Part shown: in pieces, positions 1,976 through 21,583 of the stretch
How positions within the stretch are numbered: position 1 is the first letter of the stretch
Layout of the letters: each line of letters opens with the position of its first letter
IMG/VR virus record: IMGVR_UViG_3300024999_000365
Coordinates: 1-25,191 of that record
From: a virus
Length of the DNA: 25,191 nucleotides
Direction: 5' to 3' (one strand)
The notes under the pieces: generated by a model
What the model saw: the letters and a program-made list of their open reading frames with translations, nothing else
What the model was told of the DNA's origin: nothing
Database searches by the model: none
Position numbers and translations under genes: made by a program

Positions 1976-3097
1976 CTATTGTTTATAATTGTTTAGTTCT
2001 TTATTTAATATTTCTTCTATATTGTCTATGTCCCAGTACCAAATCTCTAACAATTGAATATTATTTTCTTTTGCATACTCTCTTTTTCTTCTATCATGTT
2101 CTTGTTGATCTTTAAATGCTTGTTTGTTTTTATGAAATCCTTTTCTATATTCCATATGTTGAATTCCTTGAAACTCTATTAAAAGATTAAATTCTTTAAT
2201 ATAGAAATCATAAGAAAGATTTCCATTGTTAACTCCAACTAGTCCATGGTATTCTCTTTGTGCAATATAATCAATAAAATGTAATTCTAAATATCTTCTA
2301 ATATATTGTTCACCTTTTGACTCTGCACAAATAGGACACCGTTGGCCATTAATAAAATTGTTAGCGTTCATGGGAAATATTTCACCACAAGTTTTATGCG
2401 TAAAAGATAAAAGTGATTTATTATTTATATATTCTCCATCAACAGTATATTCATCATTTACCAAATCATATACTTCTTTTTGAACTATTTCAATAGTTTT
2501 TCTTTCAAGGCCGGAACATATAATACATTTATTGCCACTTAAAATATCATTAGGAATAACCATATATTCTTGATTACAAACATTATGTTTCATTTTTATC
2601 TTAGTTGAACTTCTAATGTATTCACCTAAAACTTCATATTCATCACCATATTTTTCATATATTTTCTGTTTGAATTCTTCTGTATTACTCTGCTTACTTT
2701 CATTACAATTTGGACATCTACATTTACCATGTGTAAAATTAGCAGGAGTTACCTCGTATTCATATTCACAAGTATTATGTTTCATTTTAATATACTCATG
2801 TATACCTGTATGTTCACCCAGTACGGTATATTCATTTGCAACTAAATCATAAATTTCTTTCTTAAATTGCTCTGTAGTTTTATTATATATTCTTTCTTTT
2901 ACTGGAGTACATTTATCACATTGTTTTTTATCGAAGTCTCTAAACATTCTAAAAGACGTAGAAAATGGTTCTCCACATTTACATATTAAATCTAAATCTT
3001 TTCTAATACCTAAATATTCTTTGCTTTTTAATTTACAACTAGATTCACTTTCAACTTCTATGTAATTTTTTACATCAATATATAATAATTTTCTCAT
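1976..3097 (-). CDS. Zinc-finger array plus Vsr/EDxHD-like endonuclease
   Basis: A 373-aa protein. Residues about 39-63 have a first CxC...CxxC pair. Three repeats of about 60 residues follow (about 74-131, 138-194, 201-257). Each begins EFKxxIY or a variant, continues EYxVxGEY, and has HNTC/HNVC/HKTC followed by CPNC, CIIC or CPIC, which fits one zinc site per repeat. The C-terminal 110 residues look like a Vsr-fold PD-(D/E)XK nuclease: YDFYI (296-300), IEFQGIQH (307-314) and EIWYWDID near 351. This layout is known from free-standing homing endonucleases of phages. The start ATG 3095-3097 overlaps the upstream stop by one base (TAATG), with GGAGG 8 bases before it, so translation is coupled to the upstream nuclease. 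It probably cuts DNA site-specifically; the target is unknown. Confidence 0.8.
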   Translation of the reverse strand: MRKLLYIDVKNYIEVESESSCKLKSKEYLGIRKDLDLICKCGEPFSTSFRMFRDFDKKQCDKCTPVKERIYNKTTEQFKKEIYDLVANEYTVLGEHTGIHEYIKMKHNTCEYEYEVTPANFTHGKCRCPNCNESKQSNTEEFKQKIYEKYGDEYEVLGEYIRSSTKIKMKHNVCNQEYMVIPNDILSGNKCIICSGLERKTIEIVQKEVYDLVNDEYTVDGEYINNKSLLSFTHKTCGEIFPMNANNFINGQRCPICAESKGEQYIRRYLELHFIDYIAQREYHGLVGVNNGNLSYDFYIKEFNLLIEFQGIQHMEYRKGFHKNKQAFKDQQEHDRRKREYAKENNIQLLEIWYWDIDNIEEILNKELNNYKQ

Positions 3098-4488
3098 TAT
3101 TTATTACCTCCTGTAGAGGACAATGATGTTATTTTGTTATTATCTTCTAAGTCTTTTTTAGAAATTCTCCTTAATTCTCCAAAATCATAATCAAATTGTC
3201 CTTGGGAGTTAATTATTTTTGAATTGTCAATGTCAAATTTTATCCATGAATGACCTGAATTAATATATTCTTTGGCATAAGTAATCATTTCTATTATTAT
3301 TTTATCAGAAGGAATATAATCATTTATCGATATAATTCTAATTAACATCCATCCTTTTAATCGGATAAATATTTCTCGTCTTTTTTCTTTATTATAAAAT
3401 TCGTCAATTGATATTTGATTTAATTTTATACTATTTGTATGACCTCCACCATCATACTCGATACAAATAAATTCTTTTGGAAATGCAATATCTAAACTAC
3501 AAGTCGAAATAGGGTAATTTAATTCTCCATTCAATAAATTACATAAATATTCTTGTTGTTTAGATGTTGGTGAAGTATTATTCAAATACATAGTTTTACG
3601 AGATTTTTCTATGATTTTTACATCTCTAAATGGATGACCACCTACATATTTTATCCACGTTTTATTGCGTTTATCTTTTACTTCATCATTTAATAAACTA
3701 CATGAAAATCCGTATCTATCTACACATGTGTTTTTTACTTTTTCTTTAATTTCTTCATTTTTGGATGGATTATCAAAACCATATTTTTCAATATTAGTAT
3801 TAATAATTTTATTCTTAATATCTTTATTCTGTATAGGATATAAAACATCATAATTATCCATCATAGTTTTTTTACTTTTATTTTGTACATCAATATTATT
3901 TAATGAACAAATTTCACCATATCGTTCAATATTAGTATCAATTTGTTTTTGTCTAACTTCGTCATTTTGAGAAACCCATTCAACACCATATTTCCTTAAA
4001 TTAGTTTTTATAACTTTTTCTTTCCACTCTTCTGTTTGAGCATAATTTTCTGCTCCATATTTATCTAAGCATGTATTTTTAATTTTATCTTTAATTTCTT
4101 CAGATTGAAAAGTATTTTCTACTCCGTATTTATCTAAACATGTATTTTTGCGTTTATTACTGACTTCATTTAACGAATTTGTACTTTCAACACCATATTT
4201 TAATAAATTACTTTCCTTAACTTTTAATGATTGACATTTCTTACAGCAATCTTTATGTATAATTGCTTTTTCATTCTGCTTGATATAATCCTGATATTTT
4301 TTATTTGTAGTATTTATAAAACAATAATCACAAAGTACATCTACATATATATCGCTATTACCTTTTGACACATCTTCCACTTTGACTTCAAATTCATCAT
4401 TATATTGCGTAAAAACATATCCTTTGTTAATATAGTATTTTTTGTTTCTTTTATTCCAGTTAATTAATACAGTTTTAGTAAGCACCAT
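3097..4488 (-). CDS. KYG-repeat DNA-binding array plus Vsr/EDxHD-like endonuclease
   Basis: A 463-aa protein. The N-terminus has a possible zinc site (CDYC at 53-56, DCCKKC at 80-85). Residues about 93-300 hold eight or nine degenerate 23-residue repeats with the consensus NTCLDKYGVEN...EEIKDKIK. Such KYG repeats occur as DNA-contacting arrays in phage and viral endonucleases. The nuclease domain follows: LDIAF (332-336), IEYDGGGH (343-350), then a basic helix and the strand GWMLIRI. The D...E-x-D-x-x-x-H layout matches EDxHD/Vsr-type homing nucleases of the I-Bth0305I kind. An SD (GGAGGTAA) lies 6 bases before ATG 4486-4488. It is the first gene of a two-gene operon with its own consensus promoter and structured leader. 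A protein of related architecture lies directly downstream. Confidence 0.8.
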   Translation of the reverse strand: MVLTKTVLINWNKRNKKYYINKGYVFTQYNDEFEVKVEDVSKGNSDIYVDVLCDYCFINTTNKKYQDYIKQNEKAIIHKDCCKKCQSLKVKESNLLKYGVESTNSLNEVSNKRKNTCLDKYGVENTFQSEEIKDKIKNTCLDKYGAENYAQTEEWKEKVIKTNLRKYGVEWVSQNDEVRQKQIDTNIERYGEICSLNNIDVQNKSKKTMMDNYDVLYPIQNKDIKNKIINTNIEKYGFDNPSKNEEIKEKVKNTCVDRYGFSCSLLNDEVKDKRNKTWIKYVGGHPFRDVKIIEKSRKTMYLNNTSPTSKQQEYLCNLLNGELNYPISTCSLDIAFPKEFICIEYDGGGHTNSIKLNQISIDEFYNKEKRREIFIRLKGWMLIRIISINDYIPSDKIIIEMITYAKEYINSGHSWIKFDIDNSKIINSQGQFDYDFGELRRISKKDLEDNNKITSLSSTGGNK

Positions 4489-6515: not shown

Positions 6516-6998
6516 TCAATTAAATTCCACAACATTATAAATCAAACGATATCCCTGAAATTTTTCATTAGCAGCAATCCAATTTGACCTTTCGAATATT
6601 AACTTACCAATGCCAACAATTCTTTGTTCATTGAATAACTTATCAATTTCGCCCATTATGCCATAAGGTCTAAGTTTCCCTTCAGCAATAGGCCATAAAC
6701 TAATATGTGAAATTACATTTATTAGTATTTTAGATGTTTTAAATTTTATATTTGTTTTACCTAAATTAAAATCATCTAAAACAACTGTGATAAAACTTTT
6801 TGCATCGTCAGTTACTAATGGAGTTATTGGAATGGGATATAGTCTGTCAAAAAGTAGAGATGTTGTATTCTCAATATTTGCTTCTAATAAAGGTGTAGAT
6901 GTATCATAATAAATTAACTTACATAAATTTTGACTACTCATCATAGTCATTAAAATTGCCATAATATCGCTGTCTAATGTCTCAAATCTACCACTAAT
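6516..6998 (-). CDS. Probable tail terminator / head-tail joining protein (AUU start proposed)
   Basis: A protein of about 160 aa between the connector genes and the chaperone-like gene, where siphophage and myophage clusters usually encode the tail terminator. It reads SGRFETLDSDIMAIL..., has a central YPIPITPLVTDD and FITVVLDDF, and ends QGYRLIYNVVEFN. The alternation of strands with one long helix suits a tail-terminator fold, but I infer the role from position. The strong SD GGAGGTGA (7002-7009) is followed, 5 bases on, by ATT 6996-6998, giving (M)SGRFETL. The upstream in-frame GTGs (7011-7013, 7005-7007) overlap or precede that SD. AUU is therefore my preferred start; GTG 7013 would add 5 residues. 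Confidence 0.6.
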   Translation of the reverse strand: MSGRFETLDSDIMAILMTMMSSQNLCKLIYYDTSTPLLEANIENTTSLLFDRLYPIPITPLVTDDAKSFITVVLDDFNLGKTNIKFKTSKILINVISHISLWPIAEGKLRPYGIMGEIDKLFNEQRIVGIGKLIFERSNWIAANEKFQGYRLIYNVVEFN

Positions 6999-7016
6999 AA
7001 TAATCACCTCCACACT

Positions 7017-9767: not shown

Positions 9768-10874
9768 TTAAGATACTTTGACTATCCCATAATAACTTTG
9801 TGCTGCCAATTTGATTTCCCATTTTTCAGTTAGCGTATATGACATAGTATCATCTGCGTTTTCAAATTCACGGCTTGAACGTATTGTTGTACGTCCCTCC
9901 ATCCCAAGTTTACATATTTTATCAACAGCAGAACTAACTATAATTACATAGTCATTATCAATTGCAAAATCGTAAGCAGAATTTGGCTTAATACTCTGAT
10001 CTAGTTTTATTGTTGGAATTCCAAAAGGAGATTGAATATATCCAACATCAGTAAATTCTCTCCCTAACTCTAATTTCATGTAATCTGAAGTTGGCAAAAT
10101 TTTATTTAATGCAACTTTTGTACCAATAGTTACCGCAGGAGAACCATTAGCAGCAGATACTCTTTCAGCTAATTTAATATATGTATCTTGTGCAAAAGTG
10201 GCTTCTTTAAAGTTAGTTCCAATAGTGGAATATCCGCCATAAACAATGTCAATAACCTCTTGTTGTTGTTTTGTACGGAAAGATTTAACCACTTGATTAA
10301 TTAACCAACCCCAATCATAACTTCCAGCAGCTACACGATAAATATCAATTTTTACTCCTGCTTTCTTGACTTTTGGAGTAAGAGTTACATCTTCTTCCCA
10401 CAATGTTTGGAAGTGTACACTTCTTACACCATTTGCAACTGTAGATACAGACAGCAAATGATTTGAAGGGATATGGAACGTAAGTGAGTCTCCATCTGCC
10501 ATAGATTTTACTTCACAAAAATTCAATGCTTGCTCGATTTCAGTCTTCGCATTAATTTTATTTAATGTTTCTTCCAAAACAGAGAAATACGCACGTTCAA
10601 AATTCTGGAAAGTAAAAGCTTCGATAATTGGAAAACGCTCTTTATCTAATCCAGAAATCTCATACGCCTCATCAGCCATCATATTACCAAACATAATATT
10701 CTTATCTTTTAATGGGATCACATAACCACTTACATCTTTGGTGTTTGCAAAAGTAGCATATCGAAGATTTCTACCTCCCATGTTCTCTTTTTCGTAAAGA
10801 TGATGCTTATACAATTCAACTCCTAATTCAACTGCGGCAACTTGTTTCTTAGAAAATCTAGCAATTCTATTCAT
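9768..10874 (-). CDS. Major capsid protein
   Basis: A 368-aa protein placed after the protease-scaffold gene and a probable decoration gene. Features of HK97-fold capsid proteins of Firmicute phages are visible. These include an N-terminal helix (ARFSKKQVAAVELGVELYKHHLYE), a mid-region with alternating strands (FCEVKSMADGDSLTFHIPSN), a long spine-like helix segment (SYDWGWLINQVVKSFRTKQQQEVIDIVYGGY), and a C-terminal beta section with GTKVALNKILPTSDYMKLELGREF and SPFGIPTIKLDQ. The last segments match the A-domain blocks seen in many capsid and encapsulated-phage proteins. SD AAAGGA lies about 13 bases before ATG 10872-10874. An AT-only tandem repeat sits just upstream in the leader. Gene order and sequence character make this the major capsid gene. 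Confidence 0.8.
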   Translation of the reverse strand: MNRIARFSKKQVAAVELGVELYKHHLYEKENMGGRNLRYATFANTKDVSGYVIPLKDKNIMFGNMMADEAYEISGLDKERFPIIEAFTFQNFERAYFSVLEETLNKINAKTEIEQALNFCEVKSMADGDSLTFHIPSNHLLSVSTVANGVRSVHFQTLWEEDVTLTPKVKKAGVKIDIYRVAAGSYDWGWLINQVVKSFRTKQQQEVIDIVYGGYSTIGTNFKEATFAQDTYIKLAERVSAANGSPAVTIGTKVALNKILPTSDYMKLELGREFTDVGYIQSPFGIPTIKLDQSIKPNSAYDFAIDNDYVIIVSSAVDKICKLGMEGRTTIRSSREFENADDTMSYTLTEKWEIKLAAQSYYGIVKVS

Positions 10875-10894
10875 AATTATTTATCATTCCTTTC

Positions 10895-10936
10895 ATTATT
10901 ATATTATTAATTATTATATTATTAATTATTTTATTA
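10895..10936. repeat. 15-bp AT-only tandem repeat before the capsid gene
   Basis: The unit ATTATTATATTATTA occurs twice exactly (10895-10909, 10910-10924) and then a degenerate partial copy ends at about 10936. On the minus strand each unit contains TATAAT. No -35 element stands at 16-18 bases from either copy, so this is either a replication-slippage repeat or an unstructured leader that helps capsid translation. Confidence 0.6.
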
Positions 10937-11455
10937 AACACCTTTAACTACACGGATAATAGTTGCATCTACCATAGTTTTCCCTGTAAAGATATTGCAA
11001 GTTGCTGTACCAGTTTCTTCTACTTCAAAAGCAACTCTAGTATTACCCGTTAAATCTGCGGCAGCAGCATATTGAAATGTTCCATTGGCAGGAATTACAT
11101 ATTGTCCAACTACAGGAGATCCACTGATTCCAGCAGTATTAACTTTAAATCTCATACCAGTTCTGAGACGATATGCTCTCACAGGGCGAGTAGCAACATA
11201 AGTAAAGCTTGCTTTGTTATGAAGAGGAACCCTCATTCCATTAGCATCAACATATACTTCTGCACCAACAACCATTACTACTTCATCAGTTGTTACTGCA
11301 GCAGGAACCGCAATAAGATACAAATCCCTCTCCCCACTTACCAAACCAGTTAATTTCCCCAGATAACCATCATCAAGGGGTAGCGTAGCATTTTGTACAC
11401 TCAACACATCTGCATCAAAAGATGCCTCATTCATAAATTCACATATATTAGCCAT
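10934..11455 (-). CDS. Probable capsid decoration/stabilisation protein
   Basis: A 173-aa protein immediately upstream of the capsid gene in the transcript, the usual position of a decoration or head-stabilising protein. The sequence is Ala/Val/Gly/Thr-rich and almost entirely beta: LTGLVSGERDLYLIAVP, EVVMVVGAEVYVDANGMRVPL, PVRAYRLRTGMRFKVNTAG, ISGSPVVGQYVIPANGTF. The motif 'RAYRLRxGMxFxV' followed by 'VGQYV' recurs in phage structural proteins of this position. It has higher GC than its neighbours, as often seen for abundant virion proteins. SD AAAGGA, 10 bases before ATG 11453-11455. The role is inferred from position and composition. Confidence 0.6.
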   Translation of the reverse strand: MANICEFMNEASFDADVLSVQNATLPLDDGYLGKLTGLVSGERDLYLIAVPAAVTTDEVVMVVGAEVYVDANGMRVPLHNKASFTYVATRPVRAYRLRTGMRFKVNTAGISGSPVVGQYVIPANGTFQYAAAADLTGNTRVAFEVEETGTATCNIFTGKTMVDATIIRVVKGV

Positions 11456-15493: not shown

Positions 15494-17362
15494 TTAATTA
15501 TCGAAGTCCTTCCAAGGGGTTGATGTTGGAGGTATGAAACAATCTTCGTAATTATTGTTGTCTGATTCTTTCATTAAATCTTTTTCTAAAATTGAAGCGT
15601 AGAAGTTGGAATATGAGATCGCAGAATATCTATCCTTTCGTTGTCCAGACATTTCTTTTAATTTAATATATCCTGTACTTTGATTGATTTCTGACTCCAA
15701 CAAGACCATTTCATTAACCAAAGCATCTGTATGAGCAAAAGGAGCTTCTAGTTTAGCAACCATTTCAGGAGACAATTTAGATAGGTTTTCAATTTTAGAA
15801 ATGAAATCATATGAGTCATTTTTATTTACTAACAATTTAATTTTATTTCTCTTGATATTATCTCTTAACGATACTGCTATTTCAGAATTGAATTCTGAGG
15901 TTGCAGATATTGTATAAATCTTTTGATCTGCATTTGGCACTAAGCACCTTTCCTGCATTTTTTCTTCATTCATACTATTTAAAGCAGGATATTCAATTCC
16001 TCTATCTTTATCATATAGTCTTTTACATAGATTATCATAAACTCCAATTCCATTTCCTTGTCTATCAATTACTATAAAATCACAATCTAAATCATCAAAT
16101 AATTGTCTAATTCTTATTGCTTGTAATTCGGTATGAGCACCTACCATAGTTTCCATATAGGGTATAATTCTTTCATAACCTTTAAAATTATTTCCATCTC
16201 TTTTAGACACCATTGGAAGTAATTGCATCAACATAAATACTGAAGCATCGTTTTGTTTAGTCCCAATTGCAGCTAAATCACAACTTAATATTCTGACTTC
16301 TCCTTTTTCTTTTGGAGAATATTTAAATTTTTTATCTTTTATGGTTTCATAAAATGGTTTTGGATATATAGGTTTATATATCTTTCTTATTTGAGTCAAT
16401 TCATCTGTTTTAAAAAAAGCTTTTTCGCTCTCTCCAAAAAATAAACAGTCCATTTCCATTGTCCAACTAACAATATCCATATCTTCTTCTGCTAGTTCAT
16501 CAAGCAATTGATCTTTATTAGTTAAATTTTCTTTAATTGCAAATTGATACGGAAGTCCACAAATAAAATATTTTTTACCCCTTAACATTGCATTTAAAAA
16601 TACTTTATATCTATCAAAAGACCAATTAAATTTATACCAACAAGACGATAAAAATATTTCCTGATTTCGTTCTAGATATTCTTGCTTGTTTTTGTATTCT
16701 GGCTTCTCTAAAAAACCTGGTTGTCTAGAAGCAGCTAAAAACCTTCTTAAAACTCCTCTATAAATTACAGGGTCAATCATCCGAAATTCGTCCAAGATCA
16801 AAATATTTGCGCGGGCTGATCTGGCTCCTTGTGTGGCTGCTGTAACTTTAATCCATGAACCATTTACGAACTCAACATTTGGGTCATCTGTATTCATTGA
16901 TGTTCTAATGGAACCTTTAATTTCTCGTCTTAGCATACCTGTTTTAGATTTAGCTATTAATTCAGGAATTTTTTCAGTTACAATCTTCATTGCCTGAGAT
17001 TTTTGCCCAGCAGCCACAACTATTTTTGTCTCAGGCCATAGAATGCATTTTATTACACAATATAAAGCTGTCAAATAGGTTTTGCCCAATCCTCTGCTAG
17101 CGAGAAACATTGTGTAATTATAATGAACCATACAATATAGTAATATTTTTTGAAAAGTTTTCAAAGATAGTCCTAAATACTCTTCTGCAAAAATATCTGG
17201 GCGAGAACGATAAAAAGAAGCCCAGTCTCCAACACCATTCATTAGCTTTTCTGACCTAGTTAGTTTTTGATCTCCTTTATTATAATTTCTTGTTTTATCA
17301 AAAACACCAACTGTATTTGTTGCTTTATTTCTTTTTACTTCGAAGTTTTTATATCCAGCGAT
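15494..17362 (-). CDS. terL: Large terminase subunit (ATPase-nuclease), AUC start proposed
   Basis: The DNA packaging motor. From the first ATG (17240-17242) the protein would be 582 aa; the reading frame is open for 40 more codons upstream. ATC 17360-17362 lies 6 bases after TTAGGTGA and gives (M)AGYKNFEVKRN..., a basic N-terminus usual for this family. The ATG has only a weak AGG 12 bases upstream. In 622-residue numbering, Walker A SRGLGKT is at about 89-95, and Walker B is ILILDEF. The RNase H-like nuclease acids are in LSCDLAAIG, FIVIDRQG and AHTDALV. The WASFYRSRPDIFAEEYLG block upstream of the ATPase is also typical. It follows the zinc-finger gene by 19 bases. Confidence 0.9.
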   Translation of the reverse strand: MAGYKNFEVKRNKATNTVGVFDKTRNYNKGDQKLTRSEKLMNGVGDWASFYRSRPDIFAEEYLGLSLKTFQKILLYCMVHYNYTMFLASRGLGKTYLTALYCVIKCILWPETKIVVAAGQKSQAMKIVTEKIPELIAKSKTGMLRREIKGSIRTSMNTDDPNVEFVNGSWIKVTAATQGARSARANILILDEFRMIDPVIYRGVLRRFLAASRQPGFLEKPEYKNKQEYLERNQEIFLSSCWYKFNWSFDRYKVFLNAMLRGKKYFICGLPYQFAIKENLTNKDQLLDELAEEDMDIVSWTMEMDCLFFGESEKAFFKTDELTQIRKIYKPIYPKPFYETIKDKKFKYSPKEKGEVRILSCDLAAIGTKQNDASVFMLMQLLPMVSKRDGNNFKGYERIIPYMETMVGAHTELQAIRIRQLFDDLDCDFIVIDRQGNGIGVYDNLCKRLYDKDRGIEYPALNSMNEEKMQERCLVPNADQKIYTISATSEFNSEIAVSLRDNIKRNKIKLLVNKNDSYDFISKIENLSKLSPEMVAKLEAPFAHTDALVNEMVLLESEINQSTGYIKLKEMSGQRKDRYSAISYSNFYASILEKDLMKESDNNNYEDCFIPPTSTPWKDFDN

Positions 17363-17381
17363 TATATATCACCTAATTTCT

Positions 17382-18374
17382 CTACTCCTCATCTTCATTT
17401 TGTATACTATCAAAATCAATAGTATACTCTTTTAAAGAATCCTCGTATTTGTCTACTGTTTCATTATTTAAATTCATCATTTTTGCTAAATGACCAACCA
17501 TGTAAACATCAATATATTTTTTCATTTCATCATCCAATGTTTCATGGACTGGTTTTTCATTTTCCCATTTTTTTATTAATGTACCAAAAGTAACTTGATC
17601 GTTTGCTTCTGCTCCTGTTGCCTGAACTGGTTTCATATTTGCATCATTCATAAGTTTACTTCTTGTTTCAATTAATTTATTAATTTCCCCTTTAGTATCT
17701 TTGCCTTCTTGTCTTATTTTTTCAATGTCAAGATTAATAAAAGAAATATCTTTCATGATCATTTCCATGCCATAATCTGGACACTCAAAACTTGACTTAA
17801 TCTTAAATATTTCTTCTACAAGGAAATCATATTCCCAATTTTCTCTATTTTTCCCCCAATATTTTACTGTTTCTTCTGGAATTCCATCATAATCATATAA
17901 TTCTTGATTTTTTGACATATCAGTATTCATATTTATACTTGTTGTTTCCATATTGTCTTTAATATAATTAAAATCACTATCTTTATATCTAAAAGTATCC
18001 ATTTTTTCATTACTCTTATTTGTTGAAGAGAGTTTGCTTTTATAATATCCAAGAACCCGATCAGCTTTTTTCCCTTTAGTTAGTAAACTTTCTATATGTG
18101 ATTGTGTTTGCTTTAAAGCTTCCGCACTAAACCTAATATCTAAATCTTGACAAGTTAATTGTAAAGCAACTTCTAAAATATTATGTATTGAGAAATAATC
18201 CTCATAAATTTGATTACAGCATTCACGGCATATGCTCATAAAACCATTTTTGTCAAGCATAGGATTCGTTGCTTCATAAAAATTAGTTTGAGACTTATGT
18301 TTCATACATACCCTACAATATATTTCTCCAACATTTTCTTTAGGTTCTCTTATTGTTTTAGTCGTCCTTGGAAT
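17382..18374 (-). CDS. Zinc-finger protein in the small-terminase position (AUU start)
   Basis: A protein of about 330 aa directly upstream of the large terminase. A four-Cys zinc module opens it: CRVC (20-23) and CREC (49-52), with TNFYEATNPMLDKNG between them, a pattern common in phage zinc-ribbon proteins. The rest is mostly helical and ends in an acidic tail. The first in-frame ATG (18303-18305) comes after the first CxxC and would destroy the zinc site. Upstream there is no ATG, GTG, TTG or CTG before the in-frame TGA. GAGGTGA (18381-18387) is followed, 6 bases on, by ATT 18372-18374, giving (M)PRTTKTI. The small-terminase role is inferred from position. The alternative is a frameshift from the short upstream ORF. 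Confidence 0.65.
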   Translation of the reverse strand: MPRTTKTIREPKENVGEIYCRVCMKHKSQTNFYEATNPMLDKNGFMSICRECCNQIYEDYFSIHNILEVALQLTCQDLDIRFSAEALKQTQSHIESLLTKGKKADRVLGYYKSKLSSTNKSNEKMDTFRYKDSDFNYIKDNMETTSINMNTDMSKNQELYDYDGIPEETVKYWGKNRENWEYDFLVEEIFKIKSSFECPDYGMEMIMKDISFINLDIEKIRQEGKDTKGEINKLIETRSKLMNDANMKPVQATGAEANDQVTFGTLIKKWENEKPVHETLDDEMKKYIDVYMVGHLAKMMNLNNETVDKYEDSLKEYTIDFDSIQNEDEE

Positions 18375-18427
18375 GCGAATTCACCTCTTTTGTTACCAAC
18401 ATCTTCTAATTCCTTCTTTCCGTACAT
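18350..18427 (-). CDS. Short upstream ORF overlapping the zinc-finger gene start
   Basis: 25 codons (MYGKKELEDVGNKRGEF...) from ATG 18425-18427, with GGAG 8 bases before it. The stop lies 22 bases inside the downstream zinc-finger gene, in another frame. The SD falls inside the GTACGGAGAA arm of the pseudoknot candidate, so folding could hide it. It may be a coupling leader for the AUU-start gene, or the remains of a longer N-terminus. Confidence 0.35.
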   Translation of the reverse strand: MYGKKELEDVGNKRGEFAFQGRLKQ

Positions 18428-18433
18428 TTTTAT

Positions 18434-18510
18434 TTCTCCGTACTAACCACATAAAAATAAATAGAAGAGAGGGTACGGAGAATAGGAGCAACCCTAAACT
18501 ACCTCTCTTC
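18434..18510 (-). promoter_or_regulatory. Terminator hairpin with H-type pseudoknot potential before the terminase genes
   Basis: On the minus strand, GAAGAGAGG (18510-18502) pairs with CCTCTCTTC (18472-18464), followed by TATTTATTTTT: a terminator. The ten bases just before the 3' arm, TTCTCCGTAC (18482-18473), are perfectly complementary to GTACGGAGAA (18443-18434) downstream. The two stems interleave, with 19- and 20-base connecting loops and no gap between helices, which is a feasible pseudoknot. A second GTACGG (18419-18424) could compete. Confidence 0.55.
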
Positions 18511-18532
18511 CAATGAACAAATTATGCTCACA

Positions 18533-18559
18533 TAAAAACATCGCCAATTAAGACGATGT
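18533..18559 (-). terminator. Terminator after the GIY-YIG pseudogene
   Basis: On the minus strand, a 6-bp stem ACATCG/CGATGT with a 10-base loop runs into TTTTTATG. It lies 24 bases after the stop of the frameshifted gene and just before the larger hairpin at 18464-18510. Confidence 0.6.
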
Positions 18560-18582
18560 ATAATCTAAACATAATTCAAACT

Positions 18583-19844: not shown

Positions 19845-20330
19845 TTATTCTTCTTCGATTACATCAAACTGACTCATAAAATTATCTAATTGTACATCCA
19901 ACTGAGCAGAAACCTTAATCATACTATTTCCAAGTTGACTATATATTTCAGTAGATGTTTCTAAACCAGTCTTTGTTTTTATAGCGTCTATATAATTAGT
20001 TAATAAATCCTTTGCTTCATAATCATCCATTTCTCTAATAGTATAAATTATATCTAACAATTCTTGACATTGAGGACAATCACATTCTTCATTAGACTCA
20101 TATTCGGAATCATTAGAATTATATTTATTAATATTAGTGACATTACTAGGTTTAGTAGGATTACTATTTTCAGGACTTCCATTCATTTTAGGAAGAGGAG
20201 GCATGATGTATAGAGATTCATCCAAAGAGACTTTATCATATGTTTCTTTATCTACAAATTTATTATTTATCATAAATTCTGATTTACCATCTGTAATAAT
20301 TTCCTTAAACATTATCTTCTCAAATGCCAT
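19845..20330 (-). CDS. Hypothetical protein with CDCPQC motif
   Basis: A 161-aa protein; GAGG lies 8 bases before ATG 20328-20330. A short folded N-terminus (IMFKEIITDGKSEFMINNKFVDKE) is followed by a low-complexity Asn/Pro/Ser linker (about 50-75) and an acidic stretch with CDCPQC. The C-terminal 70 residues are helical (LLDIIYTIREMDDYEAKDLL, then KVSAQLDVQLDNFMSQFD). The adjacent downstream gene has the similar CECPIC motif. It lies between the metallophosphoesterase and that Cys-rich protein and is probably in one transcript with both. No function can be assigned. Confidence 0.7.
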   Translation of the reverse strand: MAFEKIMFKEIITDGKSEFMINNKFVDKETYDKVSLDESLYIMPPLPKMNGSPENSNPTKPSNVTNINKYNSNDSEYESNEECDCPQCQELLDIIYTIREMDDYEAKDLLTNYIDAIKTKTGLETSTEIYSQLGNSMIKVSAQLDVQLDNFMSQFDVIEEE

Positions 20331-20371
20331 TTAAGTATCCTCATATTCTTTCTAATTATTTTATATTTTAT

Positions 20372-21583
20372 TTAAACCACACAATCATAAGCACACAAAA
20401 ATCCTTGCTCACCAATGATAGTTATAGTTTGACTTGCTTCACCAACATATCTGTGATTAGTTGAATATTCATCGAAATTAACGAAAACTCCACCCGTAAT
20501 AACCTTACATTTATCCACAGTAATTATCTCAAATCTGTGTCTGTGACCTAAGAAAATGAATTTAGGTTTCTTGTCTAATAATGATAAAAATCTACTAGGA
20601 GCATTTTTAGGCACATCATTATCGCCATGACTCAAGCAACAATAATGACCTTTAACATAAAATTCAGCAATTGTATTATCTAATATAGACTTCTCAAACT
20701 TAATATTCTTTAAATTTGCAGTTCTCAATTCCATAAATTCTAATACAAAATTCTCATATCTATCTTTGTTTTCTGCCTTATCCTTAAATTCATTATTCCG
20801 ACTGTGATTTCCGGTTACAAAATGCACAATAATTTCTTCAAAATGATTACTCAATTTCTCAATAAATTTAGACATATATTCAGAAAATCTTTTAGTTTGT
20901 TCAACAATGCCATATTGATTATTCCTTACTATGGTTTCATGAATAATTCCTGATAGGGCATCCCCTGAGAAGCATAAATGGCACTTATTAATCTTTTCTT
21001 TCTTTTTAATATCCAATATTTGCAAAGTGTAATTAGCTAATCTTTTAAGGAAAACATCTTCATTGTATTTCTCAAATTCATTATCTACAGTTAAACCAAA
21101 ATGGGTATCGCTAATCTGAACTACCATCTCATTATCTTCACCGTATGTATGTTTTGGTTCAATAAATTCTAAATGTTTTAAATCTTTAATTGACTCCTTA
21201 ATTAAATCATTTAAAGATTCTTTACGGGCAAGGTATCTTATGTCTTTATTTATAGATGTTCTTAAATCTTGAAGTTTTACTCTTTCCTTCTTGAGATTTA
21301 TTTCTTTCAAATTAAGGTCAGAAATTTGCCCACCATCATTTTTAATTTCTACAGATTCTTTATAATTAGTAGTAGATGGAGCAGGAATGATTAATTCTCT
21401 ATCACAATCACCAATAATAATATCTCTTGCTTTTAATGTTCCATTTGCTTTGCGATATTTCTTAAATTTACTCCTCAATGCCTCTCCACTGGTATAATTA
21501 AATTCCAATGCCAACGAATCCCATGATCTATTCAGAGTTTTATTATATTTTTTGTAACAAATTTCTATTAACTTACTATCCAA
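20372..21583 (-). CDS. Metallophosphoesterase (calcineurin-like) with N-terminal HTH-like segment
   Basis: A 403-aa protein. Residues about 12-45 look like a helix-turn-helix (NRSWDSLALEFNYTSGEALRSKFKKYR). A charged helical linker leads to a two-metal phosphoesterase domain with every signature in order: SDTHFG (158-163), SGDALSG (206-212), TGNHSR (257-262), LSHGD (317-321) and LGHRHR (345-350). These are the metal and catalytic ligands of the Mre11/SbcD and calcineurin superfamily. A nuclease or phosphodiesterase acting on phage DNA or nucleotides is likely; the putative DNA-binding start favours DNA. TTG 21581-21583 is the start, with GAGG 6 bases upstream. No SbcC-type ATPase is in the window. 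Confidence 0.85.
   Translation of the reverse strand: MDSKLIEICYKKYNKTLNRSWDSLALEFNYTSGEALRSKFKKYRKANGTLKARDIIIGDCDRELIIPAPSTTNYKESVEIKNDGGQISDLNLKEINLKKERVKLQDLRTSINKDIRYLARKESLNDLIKESIKDLKHLEFIEPKHTYGEDNEMVVQISDTHFGLTVDNEFEKYNEDVFLKRLANYTLQILDIKKKEKINKCHLCFSGDALSGIIHETIVRNNQYGIVEQTKRFSEYMSKFIEKLSNHFEEIIVHFVTGNHSRNNEFKDKAENKDRYENFVLEFMELRTANLKNIKFEKSILDNTIAEFYVKGHYCCLSHGDNDVPKNAPSRFLSLLDKKPKFIFLGHRHRFEIITVDKCKVITGGVFVNFDEYSTNHRYVGEASQTITIIGEQGFLCAYDCVV

What the first reader, a model, noticed from the sequence alone, without database searches (positions are those of the whole stretch)
18300..18390. AUU start required to keep a zinc finger intact
The zinc module CRVC...CREC of the gene before terL is split by its first AUG, which is the codon directly after the first CxxC. 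Between the in-frame TGA and that AUG there is no AUG, GUG, UUG or CUG. GAGGTGA followed after 6 bases by ATT gives (M)PRTTKTI, so AUU is the best candidate. AUU starts are rare in bacteria (infC is the classic case) and are screened by IF3.
Basis: partly seen in the sequence, partly recalled or inferred. Interest (0 to 1): 0.72.

Follow-up and report, generated by a model that had tools for sequence, protein, structure and literature searches.

The report
AUU start codon of phage packaging gene
A phage DNA-packaging gene almost certainly begins at the very rare start codon AUU, and the next gene (the DNA-packaging motor, at AUC) and a virion gene further along (at AUU) in the same phage do likewise, so these phages repeatedly use start codons that gene finders do not recognise.

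Summary
On the minus strand, GAGGTGA (18387-18381), six bases and ATT (18374-18372) precede a frame with no AUG, GUG, UUG or CUG between its upstream stop and an AUG at 18305, just after the first CxxC. Relatives support the interpretation. The gene is a homologue of SPbeta yonG, directly before terL. Its closest relative (62% identical) and most others carry ATG at exactly this codon. Cys20 and Cys23, lost if translation began at 18305, are invariant in 23 homologues. AUU or AUA also stands there in a second, independent clade, where an in-frame GUG inside the Shine-Dalgarno sequence leaves some doubt. In the same window terL must start at AUC (17362-17360; relatives have ATG there, the next ATG is 40 codons downstream), and a virion gene starts at AUU (6998-6996), conserved as AUU/AUA in four lineages. 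Across about 1.05 Mb of related contigs, ORFs with a strong Shine-Dalgarno sequence but no canonical start have an Ile codon at the start position in 18 of 25 cases (9.4% expected). The same screen found only infC (AUU) in two Bacillales chromosome stretches. No protein was sequenced; the mechanism follows infC and S. aureus precedents.

The parts
17382..18374 (-). yonG-like gene from AUU to stop; (M)PRTTKTIREPKENVGEIYCRVC..., 330 aa, zinc-finger-like N terminus, upstream of terL
   Evidence: tblastn to SPBc2 yonG; PHROG 3314 E 5.9e-34; alignment of 23 homologues
18372..18374 (-). AUU start codon
   Evidence: ATG at the aligned codon in the closest relative and most others; only start candidate in frame with a Shine-Dalgarno sequence at normal spacing
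18381..18387 (-). Shine-Dalgarno sequence GAGGTGA, 9 nt from GAGG to AUU; contains the in-frame TGA (18383-18381)
   Evidence: sequence; 7-nt match, aligned spacing 9
18303..18305 (-). first AUG of the frame; internal Met codon, not the start
   Evidence: lies after invariant Cys20 and Cys23
15494..17362 (-). terL (large terminase) from AUC; the mechanical ATG start at 17242 is 40 codons too far downstream
   Evidence: homologues L009, L010/L020, L021 start ATG at the aligned codon, MAGYKNF vs IAGYKNF
17360..17362 (-). AUC start codon of terL
   Evidence: no ATG/GTG/TTG between the in-frame TGA (17371-17369) and 17242; aligned to ATG
17368..17374 (-). Shine-Dalgarno sequence AGGTGAT of terL, same register as yonG (AGG-TGA-6 nt-start)
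   Evidence: sequence
6516..6998 (-). virion structural gene (PHROG 6123, head and packaging) from AUU; ORF list gives GTG at 7013
   Evidence: orthologues have ATA/ATT at the aligned codon in four lineages; PHROG
6996..6998 (-). AUU start codon of the virion gene, after GGAGGTGATTATT
18350..18424 (-). overlapping short ORF MYGKKELEDVGNKRGEFAFQGRLKQ; not conserved
18383..18577 (-). leader that in relative G001 belongs to an HNH-type endonuclease gene; homology ends inside the AAAAGAGGT at the Shine-Dalgarno sequence
   Evidence: blastn 74% over 209 columns

Best explanation
The yonG-like gene is translated from AUU at 18374-18372. The host 30S subunit is held by seven contiguous base pairs between GAGGUGA and the 3' end of 16S rRNA, at the usual spacing, and initiator tRNA decodes AUU despite the third-position mismatch, giving fMet-PRTTKTI... 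with the whole zinc module. Shown: the sequence, the absence of any other start, ATG in relatives at the same codon, and the invariance of the upstream cysteines. Inferred: that AUU lowers output (to about a tenth of AUG, as measured for S. aureus AUU/AUA starts), that IF3 screens it, and that it serves as a fixed low setting for a packaging protein needed in few copies. The same explanation covers AUC of terL (probably helped by coupling, since yonG stops 19 bases upstream) and AUU of the virion gene.
For: Homologue ATG at the aligned codon; two independent changes from canonical to AUU/AUA on the tree; invariant Cys20/Cys23/Cys49; Shine-Dalgarno match and spacing like those of normal genes of these phages; identical architecture GGAGGTG-TCTAACT-ATT for infC in two Bacillales, returned by the same screen; Ile codons at the start position in 18 of 25 sites against 9.4%, p about 1e-13, and in 10 of 14 when no GTG/TTG/ATG lies near, against 10 of 100 out of frame; terL AUC and virion-gene AUU in the same window; S. 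aureus cvfC1 AUU, ccpN AUA, infC AUA with extended Shine-Dalgarno sequences, about 10% of AUG (PMC13009471); Borrelia PncA AUU start confirmed by structure (PMC13398362).
Against: No peptide, ribosome-profiling or reporter data. The host is unknown. Only one sequence version (window and L008) has AUU with no alternative; in the second clade an in-frame GUG 9 nt upstream, inside the Shine-Dalgarno sequence, could in principle serve. ACG and AUA are further near-cognates in the frame, though without a Shine-Dalgarno sequence. The recent loss or gain of an endonuclease at this spot means that the leader may not be at equilibrium.
Confidence: 0.87

Rival explanations
1. Translation starts at AUG 18305, giving a 307-aa protein without the first CxxC.
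For: It is the first AUG, with a weak AGGG five bases upstream; gene finders would choose it.
Against: Cys20 and Cys23 are invariant in 23 homologues and precede it; the frame upstream back to PR is conserved; relatives start upstream at ATG.
Confidence: 0.05
2. A frameshift joins the MYGKKEL ORF, which has its own Shine-Dalgarno sequence, to the zinc-finger frame.
For: The ORF overlaps the start, and CTAAAAC could allow a weak -1 slip; one distant homologue (L055) begins MANKKGAGRPS, resembling NKRGEFAFQGR.
Against: The ORF is absent from relatives; in G001 the same leader starts an endonuclease in another frame; the residues PR..KT lie in the AUU frame and are conserved.
Confidence: 0.04
3. 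The gene lost its start in a recent rearrangement (endonuclease deletion at a 9-nt repeat) and is decaying.
For: Leader homology to G001 ends inside AAAAGAGGT, shared by the endonuclease start and the Shine-Dalgarno sequence.
Against: Open frame of 330 codons; identical in a second contig that differs elsewhere; the Shine-Dalgarno sequence sits at normal spacing; the same kind of start occurs in terL and a virion gene, which cannot all be decaying in a phage.
Confidence: 0.05
4. In the relatives of the second clade (not in the window) the start is the GUG inside the Shine-Dalgarno sequence and AUU/AUA is an ordinary Ile codon.
For: GTG is in frame exactly 9 nt upstream in all of them; ATT/ATA exchange is synonymous.
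Against: That GTG has no Shine-Dalgarno sequence of its own, whereas ATT does; it is out of frame in the window; the codons between vary non-synonymously.
Confidence: 0.2

Closest known systems
infC (IF3) AUU/AUA start
   Same: AUU after an extended Shine-Dalgarno sequence at aligned spacing 9; returned by the same screen
   Different: infC encodes IF3 itself and is autoregulated; the phage genes encode packaging and virion proteins
S. aureus cvfC1 (AUU) and ccpN (AUA) (PMC13009471)
   Same: conserved AUU/AUA, extended Shine-Dalgarno sequence, Firmicutes; cvfC1 is also a putative zinc-finger protein
   Different: single chromosomal genes, shown by Ribo-Ret and reporters; here phage genes, several per genome, sequence evidence only
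Borrelia burgdorferi pncA/bbe22 AUU start (PMC13398362)
   Same: AUU start upstream of a wrongly annotated downstream start, needed for the fold
   Different: plasmid-borne metabolic gene, experimentally supported
SPbeta YonG and its SPbeta-like homologues
   Same: homologous protein and gene order yonG-terL-portal
   Different: SPbeta and most relatives use ATG (or GTG) at this gene
SPBc2 youA (ATT) and yomF (CTG) as annotated in NC_001884
   Same: non-canonical start after a strong Shine-Dalgarno sequence in an SPbeta-group phage
   Different: other genes; youA is not homologous to the window's virion gene

Membership tests
Non-canonical AUU/AUA start with extended Shine-Dalgarno sequence | No canonical start that keeps the conserved N terminus | tested here: met
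   codon list between TGA and ATG; invariant Cys before the ATG
Non-canonical AUU/AUA start with extended Shine-Dalgarno sequence | Shine-Dalgarno match of 7 nt or more at normal spacing | tested here: met
   GAGGTGA, aligned spacing 9
Non-canonical AUU/AUA start with extended Shine-Dalgarno sequence | Homologues carry a start codon at the same position | tested here: met
   ATG in L009 and others, ATT/ATA in the second clade
Non-canonical AUU/AUA start with extended Shine-Dalgarno sequence | Initiation at the codon shown by peptide, profiling or reporter | not testable with these tools
   no experimental data
Non-canonical AUU/AUA start with extended Shine-Dalgarno sequence | Reduced output and IF3 sensitivity | not testable with these tools
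   inferred from PMC13009471 and PMC5472188
YonG family (PHROG 3314) | Sequence homology over most of the length and position before terL | tested here: met
   E 5.9e-34 over residues 13-319; tblastn; terL downstream
Small terminase | Known TerS fold or function | tested here: inconclusive
   no PDB match by profile or fold; model pLDDT 74, pTM 0.39; position only

The most novel reading that the evidence does not exclude
SPbeta-like phages of low-GC Firmicutes use AUU, AUA and AUC starts systematically (about 2% of genes), including the large terminase and a virion gene in which AUU/AUA is conserved over deep divergence, as a built-in low translation setting paired with strong Shine-Dalgarno sequences.
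Probability: 0.55. Interest if true: 0.75.

Novelty: new variant of a known kind. Interest (0 to 1): 0.64.

Why it matters
Known AUU/AUA starts in bacteria are isolated cases (infC, pcnB, cvfC1, ccpN). Three Ile-codon starts in 25 kb of one phage, two of them in adjacent packaging genes and one conserved as AUU/AUA across lineages, suggest that phages use weak starts as a regular way to set protein levels. It also means that standard gene finders truncate terL and structural proteins in such phages, which affects marker-gene phylogeny and virion proteomics.

Tried and rejected
My first idea, a single-base deletion joining GRLK to KTIREP, was dropped because relatives keep the AUU frame (PRxxKT) without it. 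No special initiator tRNA: no tRNA in the window and only Thr, Cys and Ala tRNAs in the relatives scanned. No unusual RNA structure at the start (z 0.58). The AlphaFold model gave no usable fold match. Restriction to this lineage could not be shown: 18 per 1,017 genes against 1 per 185 in phages G, K and Sundance is not significant (Fisher p 0.34), and Clostridioides phages show AUA as well. A purely homology-anchored survey was sparse; the clean cases with no canonical codon nearby are yonG, terL, the virion gene, one G005 AUA gene and one ACG gene of a Clostridioides phage; infC is the chromosomal one. Literature searches found no report of AUU starts in SPbeta-like phages; from memory, an internal AUU start in phage T4 gene 26 has been reported, but I could not retrieve that paper.

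Full report
Observation. On the minus strand, GAGGTGA (18387-18381) is followed by ATTCGC and ATT (18374-18372), and the frame then reads (I)PRTTKTIREPKENVGEIYCRVCMKHK.... The in-frame stop is the TGA of GAGGTGA itself. Between it and the ATG at 18305 the codons include ATT twice, ACG and ATA twice, but no ATG, GTG, TTG or CTG. The ATG is the codon after the first CxxC.

What the gene is. It is a homologue of SPbeta YonG, the gene directly upstream of the terminase (yonF) in SPbeta-like phages of Bacillus, Staphylococcus, Mammaliicoccus and Clostridioides, PHROG 3314. The window is a 25-kb virus record. A near-identical contig from another sample (G003; 72 mismatches over 20.4 kb) has the same start region.

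Where relatives start. Among viral-contig homologues the codon aligned with the window's ATT is ATG in the closest relative (L009/G004, 62%) and in most others, typically GGAG(A/T)TGATGCCAG-ATG-CCA-AGA. In a second clade the aligned codon is ATT or ATA after AAAGAGGTGAGACCT, in yonG homologues and also in more divergent proteins that share this leader. A tree puts the window and that clade apart, so AUU/AUA arose at least twice. In the second clade a GTG inside the Shine-Dalgarno sequence is in frame, so an alternative remains there; in the window that GTG is out of frame and the frame is closed by the TGA.

Why the AUG at 18305 is not the start. Cys20, Cys23 and Cys49 are invariant in 23 homologues. 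Starting at 18305 would delete the first two. The PR..KT motif after the AUU is conserved too.

Why a frameshift is unlikely. The MYGKKEL ORF is not conserved. In G001 (227 kb) the same leader, 74% identical, runs into an endonuclease gene that starts ATG TTA ATT ACA AAA GAG GTA, and the yonG homologue follows 1.2 kb later. The window lacks that endonuclease; the homology ends inside AAAAGAGGT, which occurs both at the endonuclease start and at the yonG Shine-Dalgarno sequence, as expected for loss or gain of the endonuclease at a short direct repeat (inference).

More starts of the same kind in the window. terL is open from 17368 to 15494 but its first ATG is at 17242. Homologues (59-61% identical) start ATG at the codon aligned with ATC 17362-17360: MAGYKNFEVNRNK against IAGYKNFEVKRNK. 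The architecture is the same as for yonG: AGG, an in-frame TGA, six bases, start codon. Its start lies 19 bases after the yonG stop, so coupling may help. The virion gene at 6516-6998 (PHROG 6123) has ATT after GGAGGTGATTATT; orthologues at about 30% identity start at ATA (G005, G006) and ATT (L139-L141), never ATG. In L139-L141 there is no canonical codon upstream in the frame at all.

Phage-wide survey. In six related contigs (about 1.05 Mb; 1,017 ORFs with a canonical start and Shine-Dalgarno sequence), ORFs that have a Shine-Dalgarno match of at least 7 nt near their 5' end but no canonical start in register were collected. The codon at aligned spacing 8-9 is ATA (9), ATT (8) or ATC (1) in 18 of 25, against a background of 9.4% (p about 8e-14). 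Triplets at out-of-frame offsets of the same sites are Ile-type in 10 of 100. When sites with a canonical codon close by are excluded, 10 of 14 remain. The 18 include two yonG and two virion-gene orthologues, so they are not all independent, and not every ORF is a proven gene. The count is also conservative in that terL itself escaped the screen. Functions include HNH, NUMOD4 and LAGLIDADG endonucleases, an integrase and a radical SAM protein; for the integrase and one small protein a homologue has ATG at the aligned codon.

Controls. The same screen on 246 kb of two Bacillales chromosomes, chosen because they hold infC, gave infC (GGAGGTGTCTAACT-ATT and GGAGGTGGCTAACT-ATT) and one non-Ile hit. 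Parts of phages G, K and Sundance gave one ATA per 185 genes; Clostridioides SPbeta-like phages gave four ATA of six. The SPBc2 record annotates youA with ATT and yomF with CTG. The rate in this group is not significantly above the controls, so restriction to the group is not shown.

Mechanism. The most likely mechanism is ordinary 30S initiation with fMet-tRNA at AUU (or AUC), made possible by a strong Shine-Dalgarno sequence. In S. aureus the conserved AUU of cvfC1 and the AUA of ccpN and infC work like this, and the tested non-canonical starts give about 10% of the AUG level (PMC13009471). IF3 represses non-canonical starts (PMC5472188). That the weak start sets a low level of packaging proteins is an inference. 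No phage initiator tRNA was found that could explain it.

Verdict. The AUU start is very likely real. Alone it would be one more member of a known, rare kind. Together with AUC for terL, a conserved AUU/AUA virion gene, and the survey, it points to recurrent use of Ile-codon starts in these phages, which is testable with SPbeta in B. subtilis.

Noticed in passing
window 15494-17368 (minus): terL has no ATG/GTG/TTG in its conserved first 40 codons; homologues have ATG at the codon that is ATC here (17362-17360).
   Followed up: yes
window 6516-7013 (minus): Virion gene with AUU start (6998-6996) where orthologues have ATA or ATT at the same codon.
   Followed up: yes
G001 20151-21325 (L080); window 18383-18577: An HNH-type endonuclease gene sits between the shared leader and the yonG homologue in G001 and is absent from the window; junction at the 9-nt repeat AAAAGAGGT.
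   Followed up: partly
G001 116962-117771 (minus), G005 338517-339029 (minus), G007 10335-11108 (minus): AUA or AUU start candidates for a radical SAM protein, a NUMOD4/HNH endonuclease and an HNH endonuclease, each after a strong Shine-Dalgarno sequence.
   Followed up: partly
L145 (Clostridioides phage CP067347) 19704-21293 (minus): ACG at the start position after GAAAGGAG where a 91%-identical homologue in CP067352 has ATG.
   Followed up: no
SPBc2 NC_001884 45295 and 26974 (L114): The deposited record annotates youA with an ATT start and yomF with a CTG start, both after strong Shine-Dalgarno sequences.
   Followed up: partly
L059-L062, L065, L067: Divergent proteins, with a different zinc module, share the leader and first codons GAGGTGA(G/T)ACCTAT(T/A)CCTAGAGTTGG with the yonG homologues, as if the 5' end had been exchanged as a unit.
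   Followed up: no
window 1976-4488 (minus): Two adjacent genes whose translations look like endonuclease-type proteins with repeated motifs; judged by eye only.
   Followed up: no
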